Of a stretch of DNA of 64,000 bases, positions 33,842 to 38,208 are shown one piece after another (the first letter of the stretch is position 1; the number at the start of each line of letters is the position of its first letter). This stretch comes from Acetobacter cerevisiae. Lineage in GTDB: Bacteria > Pseudomonadota > Alphaproteobacteria > Acetobacterales > Acetobacteraceae. The notes beneath the pieces are model-generated. The model saw nothing but the letters and a program-made list of their open reading frames with translations. It had not been told where the DNA came from and did not search any database. The position numbers and the translations under genes were made by a program. The stretch is taken from assembly GCF_001580535.1 (NCBI RefSeq), contig NZ_LHZA01000152.1, positions 1-64,000 on the forward strand, in the 5' to 3' direction.

Positions 33842-35866
33842 ATGAAGACCTGCCGCAAGGGCAGGCCCATCACGGAAGGCAGGCGAATGGCAGCAGTCCC
33901 TTCGACAGACCCGACCGAACTGCGGGAAGAGGCTACCCTCTCCGCCCAGCAAAGTGCCGTGGCCAGAATGAGCCGCGCCGCACGCGTGCTGCTGAATGAT
34001 GAACCCCTCCCGCCCCACGCCCGCACCCTGCTGAACAGAATGTGCCTGCCGGTGACAGCACTCTGGTGCCGGGTGCTGCGGTTTGACCCCAGCGCCCCTA
34101 ACTGGCCGGACCGGGACCGGTTTGTGGTGCCCTCCACCACCATGCTGCCTCTTCTGCGCGCCATGCTGCGCCTGACGGGCTCCCCCACGGCAAACACCAT
34201 CCCCTTGGAATATGGTCGTCACCCGGCCGTAGAAGTCGCTCCGGGTCTGGCCGGGCAGGGGGTCGCCGCAGCCGTGGGCATGGCCTTTGCAGAACAGACT
34301 CTTGCCCGCCGCTTTGGCCGCTCACTGGTCAATCACCGCACGTGGGTGCTGGCACAGGATACGGACCTCGCAACCGGTGTCGCCATGGAAGCCGCGCAAC
34401 TGGCTGGCCGCTTTGGGCTGGACAGGCTGGCCGTTCTTGTCTCCCCGCCGGCAGGCCCGGATAACGGGGACTTTGCCGATTCGCTCGCCCGCTTCAGCGC
34501 CTCTGGCTGGACGGTGCGCCGGGTGGACGCTGGCAGTGCTGCGGCCATCAGTTCCGCCCTTGCTGCCACGCTCCGGGCCCGCAAACCGACCCTGATTGCC
34601 TGCCTCCCCTCCAGTGCCCCGGAGGTTCTGCCCGGCCCCCAGCTCCCACCGGAAGAAGAGCTGACCGGCCCGTGGAGTCCTACCGCCCGACGCGGGGCGA
34701 CCACCCGGCGCTCCTGGCTACGCCGCTTTGCCCGCCATCGCCTACGCAATGCGTTTGAGCGGGAGATGCAGGGCCAGCGTCCCGCCCTGTTTGATGAGGA
34801 CTGGCAGCGCGCCTGCCGCTGGCAACTGCGCGCTGCAACCGGACACGCCACGCAGGATGCCGGTTTTGCCGGACTCCGCGCCCTTTCCGAAATTCTGCCT
34901 GAGCTGGTCTGCCTGACGGCCTCCTCCGCCTATCGGCTGGATCTGGCAGCCCCGGTCGCCCTGCCTGCCACATTCCGGGCCCGCACGCGCCTGCTGCCGG
35001 CGGAGCAGTCCTGCGGTATTCAGGATCATGGCATGGCTGGTATGCTCAACGGTATTGCCTTGCATGGGGGGCTGCTTCCCATCTGTGCCGCGAGCATGAT
35101 GACGGTGGATCGCATGCGCTCCGCCCTGCGCATGGCCGCCCTCATGCGCCGCAAAGTGCTGTATCTGCTGACGGGTGACGGGCTGGCTCTGGGTGATGGC
35201 GGCGGGGGCTGGCAGCCGGTGGAACAGCTCGCCAGCCTGCGCGCCATGCCGCATCTGGCCGTTTTCCGCCCGTGTGACGCACGAGAGACCACAGCCTGCT
35301 GGGAGGCCGCTCTCAACTGGCAGGAAGGACCAGCCATGTTGCTGCTCTGCCCGTATGAAAACCAGTACGGTCCGCTCCCTCCGCCAGCGTTCGGCACCCC
35401 CTCCCGCGGGGGGTATGTGGTGAAGCAGGAAGACAACAGGCAGGTGACGCTGATTGCCTCTGGCCCAGAGGTTGCCATCGCGCTGAAAGCGTCGCACCAT
35501 CTGGCCCGACAGGATATTCGGGCCACCGTGGTCTCCATCCCCTGCTGGGAACTGTTTGCCGAACAGCCTGCCAGCTACCGTAAGACCGTGCTCGGCACGT
35601 CCGGGCTGCGCGTGGGGGTTGAGGCCGCTTCCAGCTTTGGCTGGGAACGCTGGCTTGGTGAAGAAGGAGTTTTTGTTGGCATGGATGATTTCGGCACGTC
35701 CGCCCCGGCCAACGCATTGTATGAGCGCTTCGGCATTACTGTTGAAGCGATCTGCGAGAAGGTGCGCGCGCGCCTTCTGACCTCAGGCGGTGAACGGGGG
35801 CCTTCCCTGCGCACGCCGGACCAGCCCCGGACCCGCGTTCGGGGACCGTTAACGACCAGACCATAG
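33842..35866 (+). CDS. transketolase homologue lacking active-site residues (pseudoenzyme)
   Basis: 674 residues from ATG 33842 (33887 is an alternative start). All three transketolase domains can be aligned: NWPDRDRF, GQGVAAAVGMAFAEQTLA, HGMAGMLNGIALHGG, RMAALMRRK, QPVEQLASLR and FRPCD are near-identical to E. coli TktA. But the GHGS loop is PSTT, the ThDP motif GDG...E is QDT...T, and the catalytic Glu of REFGM is Asp (QDHGM). HDS is GDG, the GPTHQP His is Trp (GGWQP), and the phosphate-binding Arg of LSRQN is lost. The gene is intact, lies 26 nt before gap and probably forms an operon with gap-pgk, the usual tkt place. Enzyme activity is unlikely. Confidence 0.85.
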   Translation: MKTCRKGRPITEGRRMAAVPSTDPTELREEATLSAQQSAVARMSRAARVLLNDEPLPPHARTLLNRMCLPVTALWCRVLRFDPSAPNWPDRDRFVVPSTTMLPLLRAMLRLTGSPTANTIPLEYGRHPAVEVAPGLAGQGVAAAVGMAFAEQTLARRFGRSLVNHRTWVLAQDTDLATGVAMEAAQLAGRFGLDRLAVLVSPPAGPDNGDFADSLARFSASGWTVRRVDAGSAAAISSALAATLRARKPTLIACLPSSAPEVLPGPQLPPEEELTGPWSPTARRGATTRRSWLRRFARHRLRNAFEREMQGQRPALFDEDWQRACRWQLRAATGHATQDAGFAGLRALSEILPELVCLTASSAYRLDLAAPVALPATFRARTRLLPAEQSCGIQDHGMAGMLNGIALHGGLLPICAASMMTVDRMRSALRMAALMRRKVLYLLTGDGLALGDGGGGWQPVEQLASLRAMPHLAVFRPCDARETTACWEAALNWQEGPAMLLLCPYENQYGPLPPPAFGTPSRGGYVVKQEDNRQVTLIASGPEVAIALKASHHLARQDIRATVVSIPCWELFAEQPASYRKTVLGTSGLRVGVEAASSFGWERWLGEEGVFVGMDDFGTSAPANALYERFGITVEAICEKVRARLLTSGGERGPSLRTPDQPRTRVRGPLTTRP

Positions 35867-35891
35867 AATAAAAAACGGAGCTTAAAAAACC

Positions 35892-36911
35892 ATGGCAGTC
35901 AAAATTGCAATCAACGGATTCGGGCGTATTGGCCGGCTTGTGCTGCGCGGTATTATTGAAAGCGGACGCACGGACGTTGTGCCGGTGGCCATTAACGATC
36001 TCGGCAGCGTTGAGGATAACGCCCACCTGCTGAGCTATGACAGTGTGCATGGTCGCCTGCCGGCTGACGTCAAAGTTGATGGCAACAAGCTGATCATCAC
36101 GGCGCATGGCCGCACATGGGACCCGATTACCGTTTCTGCCGAGCGTGACCCCTCCAAGGTGCCGTTCCAGGGCGTGGATGTGGCCATGGAATGCACCGGC
36201 CTGTTCACCTCCAAGGAAAAAGCTGGCCAGCTTCTGGCAGCCGGTGCCCGCAAGGTGATTATTTCCGCTCCGGGCACGGATGCTGATGCCACCATCGTTT
36301 ACGGTGTGAACCAGGATGTGCTGACGCCGGACATGACGGTGATTTCCAACGCCTCCTGCACCACCAACTGTCTGGCCCCGGTCGCCAAGGTGCTGGAAGA
36401 TACGTTTGGCATTGAACGCGGCTACATGGTCACCATCCACTCCTACACGGGTGACCAGCGCACGGTGGACACGCTGCATAAAGACCTGCGCCGCGCCCGC
36501 GCTGCCGGCCTGAACATGATCCCGACCTCCACAGGCGCTGCCCGCGCCGTTGGTCTGGTTCTGCCGCAGCTTAAAGGCAAGCTGGATGGCACGGCCATTC
36601 GTGTGCCGACGGCCAACGTCTCCCTCGTCTCGCTCGACTTCGTGCCGAAAAAGGTGCCGGGCTCCGTGGAAGAGGTGAACGCTGCCATCAAGGCCGCATC
36701 CGAAGGCGCGCTGAAAGGCGTTCTGGCATACTCCGACGCCCCGCTGGTCAGCTCCGACTTCAACCATGCGCTGGCATCCTCCACCTTTGACGCCACGCAG
36801 ACCTCTCTGGTCGATGGCGGCAAGCTGGTGCGCATCTGCTCCTGGTATGACAATGAGTGGGGCTTCTCCAACCGCATGTCCGACACTGCGGCGCTGTTCG
36901 GCTCACTCTGA
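35892..36911 (+). CDS. gap: glyceraldehyde-3-phosphate dehydrogenase, type I
   Basis: 339 residues. NAD-binding N-terminus [17 protein letters not shown], catalytic Cys in [13 protein letters not shown], the catalytic His in [10 protein letters not shown], and the C-terminal [13 protein letters not shown] are all intact. CGGAG lies upstream of ATG 35892. Follows the transketolase homologue by 25 nt and overlaps pgk by one base (TGATG). Confidence 0.97.
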
Positions 36912-38134
36912 TGGCCATTCTTCCCTTCAACACGCTGGATAAGCTTGACCCGAAGGGCAAGCGTATCCTGCTGAGAGCCGATCTGAACGTCCCCATGCAG
37001 GACGGAAAGATTTCGGACATGACGCGCATTGAGCGCATTGTGCCCACCATCCGGGAACTGGCGGACAAAGGCGGGCGCGTGATTGTGCTCAGCCATTTTG
37101 ACCGCCCGAAGGGCAAGGTTGTGCCCGGCCTGTCTCTGGAACCCATGGCCGAGGCTCTGGCCACGGCACTGGGTAAACCAGTCAGCTTCATGCATGACTG
37201 CATCGGCCCGCAGGCAGAAACGGCAGCCCGCTCCCTGAAGGACGGGGAAGTGCTGCTGCTGGAAAACACCCGCTTCTACCCCGGCGAGGAAGCCAACGCG
37301 CCGGATCTGGCCGCAGAACTGGCCAGACTGGGCGATGTGTATGTGAACGATGCGTTCTCCGCAGCGCACCGGGCACATGCCTCCACCGCCGGTGTGGCCG
37401 AGCATCTGCCAGCCTATGCCGGGCGTCTGATGGAAGCGGAACTGTCCGCTCTGGATGCCGCTCTTGAAAACCCTGAGCATCCGGTTGGCGCGATTGTGGG
37501 CGGGGCGAAAGTCTCCACCAAACTCGCCCTGCTGGAAAACATGCTGGAACGTGTCGACGTTCTGGTTGTGGGTGGTGCCATGGCCAACACCTTCCTTGCG
37601 GCCAAAGGGCTGAGCGTCGGCAAATCGCTCAAGGAAGAAGAGATGCTGGATACCGCCCGGCAGATCATCGCCAAGGCGAAGGAAAAGAACTGCGATCTGG
37701 TTCTGCCGGTGGATGTTGTTCTCTCTGAGGACTTCATGGCCGGTGCGCCCACGCTGGTCGCCCCGGTGACGGAAATTCCCGATGGCTGGATGGTGCTGGA
37801 TGTGGGCCCGGAAACGGTTGCACTGCTGAAAGCCAAACTAGCTGGCCTGAAAACGCTGGTATGGAACGGCCCTCTGGGCGTGTTCGAACTGCCGCCGTTT
37901 GATGAAGGCACCAATGCCGTCGCACAGGAAGCCGCTCGCCTGACCAAGGCTGGCAGCCTGAAAACCATTGCCGGAGGGGGGGACACTGTTTCCGCCCTGC
38001 GTCACGCCGGTGTGCTGCATGACATGACGTATGTCTCCACCGCAGGCGGCGCTTTCCTGGAGTGGCTGGAAGGCAAGGTTCTGCCGGGCCTGACGGCACT
38101 CAGCTCTACGCTGGAACGGACCATTCCCATCTGA
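36911..38134 (+). CDS. pgk: phosphoglycerate kinase
   Basis: 407 residues from ATG 36911, whose A is also the last base of the gap TGA. N-terminal [32 protein letters not shown], and the C-terminal nucleotide domain [10 protein letters not shown] and [12 protein letters not shown] are diagnostic. Produces ATP from 1,3-bisphosphoglycerate. Ends in a strong terminator. Confidence 0.97.
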
Positions 38135-38176: not shown

Positions 38177-38208
38177 GCGCCGGGGGTCTCAGACCTCCGG
38201 CGTTTTTT
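38177..38208 (+). terminator. terminator of the tkt-gap-pgk operon
   Basis: Stem CGCCGGGGG/CCTCCGGCG (one G-U pair) with 7-nt loop followed by six T. It overlaps the last codons of the convergent EamA gene. Confidence 0.88.

What the first reader, a model, noticed from the sequence alone, without database searches (positions are those of the whole stretch)
33842..35866. Intact transketolase pseudoenzyme fixed in front of gap-pgk
The ORF aligns with transketolase along its whole length and keeps structural motifs. It has lost the GHGS His, the ThDP/Mg GDG-E motif, the catalytic Glu (now Asp), the HDS His, the GPTHQP His (now Trp) and the substrate-phosphate Arg. The frame has no stops, so it is under selection for something other than catalysis, for example binding a true Tkt, a sugar phosphate, or regulating gap-pgk. 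It occupies the ancestral tkt position.
Basis: partly seen in the sequence, partly recalled or inferred. Interest (0 to 1): 0.68.

Follow-up and report, generated by a model that had tools for sequence, protein, structure and literature searches.

The report
Dead transketolase kept beside gap-pgk
An acetic-acid bacterium keeps, directly in front of two glycolysis genes, an intact copy of the enzyme transketolase that has lost almost its whole active site yet is still strongly preserved by evolution, and related bacteria have made the same kind of dead copy several times independently, which points to an unknown second job for this protein.

Summary
The ORF (most likely 33887-35866, 659 aa; the given start 33842 is 15 codons too early) is a full-length transketolase homologue with a confidently modelled transketolase fold, but only 2 of 18 catalytic/cofactor positions survive. 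The genome holds a second, canonical transketolase (18/18). Orthologues lie immediately upstream of gap. 44 of 49 genomes of the genus carry the ORF intact, and pairwise dN/dS is 0.04-0.13 (active tkt in the same pairs 0.007-0.09), so it is a selected protein, not a relic. In other Acetobacteraceae the gap-linked gene is the ordinary transketolase. Across the family the gap-linked copy lost its active site several times (about 6 changes on a GAPDH tree; single origin rejected, AU p about 1e-44), always in genomes that own another complete tkt. Decayed lineages keep the C-terminal domain, the fold core and a basic linker helix that the replacement transketolases lack. I infer an ancestral non-catalytic role, most plausibly tied to the constant neighbours Gap/Pgk; partner and mechanism are unproven. 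The gene was lost outright in many small-genome acetic acid bacteria, so the role is dispensable. A published metabolic reconstruction appears to list it as an ordinary transketolase.

The parts
33887..35866 (+). pseudo-transketolase gene (659 aa, start Met16 of the listed ORF); 33842-33886 is probably untranslated
   Evidence: open frame, transketolase domains; in-frame stops upstream of Met16 in relatives L037/L038
34133..34144 (+). former GHGS substrate/ThDP motif, now STTM
34355..34378 (+). former ThDP/Mg motif GDGxxxEG, now QDTDLATG (Asp kept, Gly and Glu lost)
34667..34768 (+). basic linker helix (RRGATTRRSWLRRFARHRLRNAFER) kept in decayed lineages and in canonical gap-linked Tkts, absent from the replacement Tkt
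   Evidence: AF2 helix 280-298, block pLDDT 95-97
35024..35026 (+). catalytic Glu position (E. coli E411), Asp here, Glu in most genus relatives
35174..35218 (+). former HDSIGVGEDGPTHQP, now GDGLALGDGGGGWQP; part of it unstructured in the model (449-456)
35408..35776 (+). C-terminal transketolase domain, best kept part (82-87% of conserved positions in ten decayed clades)
35825..35844 (+). possible 8-bp RNA hairpin overlapping the end of the gene, conserved in the window's subclade only
   Evidence: fold energy not better than shuffled
35892..36911 (+). gap (glyceraldehyde-3-phosphate dehydrogenase), 25 nt downstream
36911..38134 (+). pgk (phosphoglycerate kinase); start overlaps the gap stop codon
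38177..38203 (+). terminator-like hairpin after pgk, the strongest one in the stretch; probable end of the operon
   Evidence: consensus match only

Best explanation
The gene is the ancestral transketolase of an alphaproteobacterial tkt-gap-pgk operon. After another, complete transketolase was present in the genome, the gap-linked copy lost its ThDP, metal and substrate sites and cannot act as a transketolase (shown by sequence, not by assay). It is kept as a folded protein under strong purifying selection (shown). The same loss of the active site happened several times in Acetobacteraceae, while the C-terminal domain, the fold core and a basic linker helix were kept each time (shown). Inferred: the gap-linked transketolase already had a non-catalytic, protein-level role using these surfaces, and a second enzyme freed it from catalysis. 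Inferred and weaker: because gap(-pgk) is the only partner constant across these lineages, the protein most likely acts as a dimeric scaffold or regulator that binds Gap and/or Pgk at the triose-phosphate step (my estimate for this last step alone about 0.35).
For: Second canonical tkt in the same genome and in all 49 genus genomes. All 32 sampled genomes with a decayed gap-linked copy carry another high-scoring Transketolase_N gene; in the genomes with a single tkt the gap-linked one is canonical. Gap follows within about 200 nt, mostly 5-90 nt, in the decayed and canonical loci where it is on the contig. Pairwise ML dN/dS 0.04-0.13 against 0.007-0.09 for active tkt and up to 0.08 for gap, w=1 rejected with likelihood ratios 39-405; other decayed clades 0.06-0.25. 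Neutral simulation gives 6-14 in-frame stops, never zero. GAPDH tree: 6 changes between canonical and decayed, bootstrap 6-8; one origin rejected, p-AU 1.9e-44; contrasts inside one genus (g97: L212, L217 at 18/18 against L218 at 4/18; g99: L210, L211 at 18/18 against L221 at 9/18). Retention by region: C-terminal 0.82-0.87, linker-specific positions W278, R289, L293, R295, F305, R307 at least 0.9, universal linker/active-site positions 0.34. AF2 model pLDDT 82, pTM 0.84, best PDB match 5vrb Z 37, rmsd 2.8 over 585 residues.
Against: No experiment, expression or interaction data were found. The gene is cleanly absent upstream of gap in many small-genome acetic acid bacteria that keep gap, so whatever it does is dispensable and gap works without it. 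The C-terminal domain lies away from the active site, so its retention partly reflects folding rather than a specific partner. Overall, positions specific to gap-linked Tkts are not retained significantly better than universal ones (p 0.08; AAB only p 0.26); the contrast is regional. The tie to Gap/Pgk rests on gene order alone.
Confidence: 0.55

Rival explanations
1. Inactive subunit of the true transketolase: the pseudoenzyme forms heterodimers with the canonical Tkt and tunes or blocks its activity, since transketolase active sites lie at the dimer interface.
For: Fold and the conserved PP and Pyr core are kept; a canonical Tkt is always co-present when the copy is decayed.
Against: The co-resident active Tkts are only about 35% identical to it and belong to different lineages in different genomes, which makes a conserved heterodimer interface unlikely; several genomes hold two canonical Tkts without decay.
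Confidence: 0.17
2. Cis role: translation of the long ORF is kept because it is coupled to, or carries the promoter or leader of, gap-pgk; the protein itself is unimportant.
For: Spacing of 20-90 nt to gap; synonymous divergence falls to 0.10-0.14 at both ends of the gene against 0.27-0.53 in the middle; the DNA of the C-terminal tail stays conserved even where a stop codon precedes it; a hairpin overlaps the 3' end in the window's subclade.
Against: A leader needs an open frame, not particular residues: dN/dS is lowest (0.02-0.07) in the PP domain, far from gap, and specific residues are kept across genera. Gap functions without the ORF in many relatives. It may well be true of the last 60 codons in addition to the protein role.
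Confidence: 0.12
3. New catalytic or ligand-sensing function in the remodelled pocket (Tyr440->Arg in all acetic-acid-bacterial copies and His473->Trp in nearly all).
For: Arg424 is invariant and Trp457 nearly so in the acetic-acid-bacterial clade, which suggests a rebuilt pocket in that clade.
Against: These residues are not shared by the independently decayed clades, and pocket loops 362-392 and 449-456 are predicted disordered.
Confidence: 0.1
4. Decaying relic on its way to loss, kept by chance.
For: Lost in many related genera and evolving faster than active Tkt.
Against: dN/dS 0.04-0.13, 44 of 49 genus genomes intact, zero stops where 6-14 are expected under neutrality.
Confidence: 0.02

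Closest known systems
Bacterial transketolase (TktA type, TIGR00232; PDB 5vrb, 4xeu, 2r8o)
   Same: Full-length homology, same three-domain fold (Z 36-37), gene position of the ordinary transketolase of related Acetobacteraceae.
   Different: 16 of 18 catalytic, cofactor and substrate positions lost; below the equivalog cut-off; a second canonical Tkt is present to carry out the reaction.
Gap-linked canonical transketolases of other Acetobacteraceae (e.g. L017, L022, L025, L212)
   Same: Orthologues by gene order; share the basic linker helix and C-terminal signature.
   Different: They keep 17-18 of 18 active-site positions.
Transketolase-like paralogues of animals such as TKTL1 (from general knowledge, not tested here)
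   Same: Paralogue of transketolase with altered cofactor region and debated activity.
   Different: Different lineage; loss here is far more extensive, is in an operon with gap-pgk, and arose repeatedly.

Membership tests
Transketolase superfamily (homology) | Pfam domain matches over curated cut-offs | tested here: met
   PF00456 101 bits (cut-off 22), PF02779 84 (27), PF02780 50 (25.9), PF22613 128 (27)
Transketolase superfamily (homology) | transketolase fold over the whole chain | tested here: met
   pTM 0.84; Z 37.0, rmsd 2.8, 585 residues to 5vrb
Active transketolase (EC 2.2.1.1) | score above the equivalog cut-off of TIGR00232 | tested here: not met
   361.9 bits, cut-off 682.25
Active transketolase (EC 2.2.1.1) | ThDP/Mg motif (D155, E160, N185, I187) and ThDP-ring contacts | tested here: not met
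   only the Asp kept
Active transketolase (EC 2.2.1.1) | substrate and catalytic residues H26, H66, H100, H261, R358, E411, H461, D469, H473, R520 | tested here: not met
   none kept in the window protein (E411 is Asp)
Active transketolase (EC 2.2.1.1) | measured ketol transfer or ThDP binding | not testable with these tools
   needs purified protein
Pseudoenzyme | loss of catalytic residues together with purifying selection on the protein | tested here: met
Pseudoenzyme | a demonstrated non-catalytic function | not testable with these tools
   no expression, interaction or knock-out data found

The most novel reading that the evidence does not exclude
Gap-linked transketolase of Acetobacteraceae has an ancestral non-catalytic function, carried by its linker helix and C-terminal domain, that was repeatedly isolated as a stand-alone function each time another transketolase took over catalysis: a recurrent, natural separation-of-function series of a central-metabolism enzyme.
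Probability: 0.5. Interest if true: 0.78.

Novelty: new variant of a known kind. Interest (0 to 1): 0.64.

Why it matters
A housekeeping enzyme turned into a selected non-enzyme several times, at the same operon position, with partly decayed stages alive in present genomes (15, 12 and 4 of 18 sites within one genus), is an unusually clean natural experiment for finding a hidden role of transketolase. It also corrects annotation: at least one published reconstruction of an industrial acetic acid bacterium appears to count this gene as an active transketolase.

Tried and rejected
Neutral relic: rejected by dN/dS and stop-codon simulation. Loss of the catalytic Glu as the key lesion: rejected, Glu is still present in most genus relatives. 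Frameshifted copies as evidence of decay: rejected, the same assemblies also break the canonical tkt. Reading the ladder-like Tkt protein tree as one gradual decay: set aside, since fast-evolving decayed rows attract each other; the linked GAPDH tree was used instead. Phylogenetic profile with pyruvate phosphate dikinase (gluconeogenesis): the copy and PPDK co-occur (20/24 with, 7/32 without, p 8e-6), but this fades at genus level with matched genome size (p 0.15), so it is only a hint. SD-sequestering pairing before gap: seen in some subclades only and not better than shuffled sequence. Rfam: no match. Papers: no description of this pseudoenzyme found in the held library. One alignment call was malformed and not used.

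Full report
What is there. The + strand ORF at 33842-35866 is open. Start codon: relatives in the same genus carry in-frame stops directly upstream of the residue that aligns with Met16, so the gene most likely runs 33887-35866 (659 aa). gap begins 25 nt downstream (35892), pgk overlaps the gap stop at 36911, and the strongest terminator-like hairpin of the stretch follows pgk at 38177. These look like one operon; transcription was not measured.

It is a transketolase by descent and fold but not by active site. Four Pfam transketolase domain models match above their cut-offs, while the TIGR00232 equivalog score is 362 against a cut-off of 682. An AlphaFold2 model from 35 sequences has pLDDT 82 and pTM 0.84; poorly modelled internal stretches are 264-266, 362-392 and 449-456, in or next to former cofactor/substrate loops. 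The best solved match is a bacterial transketolase, Z 37.0, rmsd 2.8 over 585 residues. Of 18 positions that bind ThDP, metal or substrate or catalyse, the window protein keeps two.

The genome has another transketolase. A Transketolase_N search of the window's assembly finds the window gene (97 bits) and a 452-bit gene on contig C57 that keeps all 18 positions. All 49 genomes of the genus have that canonical gene. 44 of the 49 have the pseudo-copy in one open frame; two small genomes (1.5 and 1.7 Mb) lack it; one is split over contig ends; two are frameshifted, and those two assemblies break the canonical tkt too.

Selection. Pairwise maximum-likelihood dN/dS (own GY94-type code, F3x4) for 19 pairs within the genus is 0.04-0.13 for the pseudo-copy, 0.007-0.09 for the canonical tkt and 0.001-0.08 for gap; w=1 is rejected with likelihood ratios of 39-405 for the pseudo-copy. 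Other genera and independently decayed clades give 0.06-0.25 where synonymous divergence is usable. Within the gene the PP domain is the most constrained (0.02-0.07), and the N-terminal 66 residues and the last 30 the least. Neutral simulation at the observed divergence gives 6-14 stops and never zero.

Origin. Gap-linked homologues occur across Acetobacteraceae, normally tens of nucleotides from gap. In many lineages the gap-linked gene is the complete, sometimes the only, transketolase (e.g. G003, G038, G059, G097). In 32 of 32 sampled genomes with a decayed copy there is another high-scoring Transketolase_N gene. Replacement Tkts fall in more than one part of the Tkt tree; the window's own is closest among solved structures to Tkt of Geobacillus and Bacillus, which suggests but does not show lateral transfer.

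Repeated decay. On a tree of the linked GAPDH proteins the canonical and decayed states need 6 changes (bootstrap 6-8; at least 3 forced by starred branches). Forcing the decayed loci into one clade costs 152 log-likelihood units, p-AU 1.9e-44. Contrasts inside single genera make the point without deep trees: g99 has 18/18 (L210, L211) and 9/18 (L221), g97 has 18/18 (L212, L217) and 4/18 (L218), g92 has 15, 12 and 4 of 18 (L215, L219, L220). L210 and L221 are sisters with 100/97 support; monophyly of g97 is not rejected on GAPDH (p 0.40). Operon transfer between lineages could change the count but not remove the pattern.

What the decayed copies keep. Over ten decayed clades, columns conserved in canonical gap-linked Tkts are retained at 0.82-0.87 in the C-terminal domain and at 0.54-0.66 in the PP and Pyr domains. 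In the linker, positions specific to gap-linked Tkts are retained at 0.69 (W278, R289, L293, R295, F305 and R307 at 0.9 or more), but universal linker/active-site positions only at 0.34. The basic helix ARRxWLKRLARHxxRxEFER is present in the canonical gap-linked enzymes and in nearly all decayed ones, and absent from the replacement Tkts. Over the whole protein the specific-versus-universal contrast is not significant (p 0.08), so this is a regional statement.

Mechanism. Shown: homology, fold, loss of the active site, purifying selection, repeated origin, presence of another tkt, constant neighbour gap. Inferred: catalytic inactivity, dimerisation, an ancestral non-catalytic role, and that role's link to Gap/Pgk. 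A heterodimer with the true Tkt is less likely because the true Tkts differ between lineages. A pure cis role is contradicted by residue-level selection in the PP domain, though low synonymous divergence in the last 60 codons (0.10 against 0.27-0.53), and conservation of the tail's DNA beyond premature stops, suggest that a nucleotide element for gap overlaps the 3' end. The gene is missing upstream of gap in many small-genome acetic acid bacteria with no remnant found in the 1.5 kb searched, so its role is conditional.

Known or not. The A. pasteurianus 386B genome paper lists transketolase as APA386B_1152 and APA386B_1521, with gap 1520 and pgk 1519 (PMC3751514): by position 1521 should be this gene, filed as an active enzyme. 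The Gluconobacter oxydans 621H paper names only GOX1703 (PMC6191907). No paper in the held library describes the pseudoenzyme; subscription journals are mostly not held. I rate it a new variant of a known kind (pseudoenzyme of a known family), with the repeated origin as the surprising part.

Noticed in passing
35690-35890: Fourfold-site divergence among close relatives drops to 0.10 over the last 58 codons of the pseudo-tkt (and 0.14 over its first 56), and the tail's DNA stays conserved past premature stop codons in L004, L040 and L042: probably a nucleotide-level element for gap expression.
   Followed up: partly
35825-35844: 8-bp hairpin CCCCGGAC-CCGC-GUUCGGGG overlapping the 3' end, with one A-U to G-C compensatory pair in the window's subclade; not found in the other subclades and not more stable than shuffles.
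   Followed up: partly
L001:1432-3534: The canonical Tkt of this Acetobacter-like genome resembles Geobacillus/Bacillus transketolases (790 bits to 8cip) more than the E. coli enzyme (638 bits): possible lateral acquisition before decay of the native gap-linked gene.
   Followed up: no
L226-L247 upstream of gap: Many small-genome acetic acid bacteria have lost the gap-linked tkt cleanly, with no recognisable remnant in 1.5 kb upstream of gap.
   Followed up: partly
L215, L219, L220 (one genus, g92): Living series of decay: 15, 12 and 4 of 18 active-site positions kept in three species of one genus.
   Followed up: partly
33842-35866: By gene order, APA386B_1521 in the A. pasteurianus 386B reconstruction (PMC3751514) should be this pseudoenzyme, listed there as transketolase: an annotation error that affects pathway models.
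   Followed up: partly
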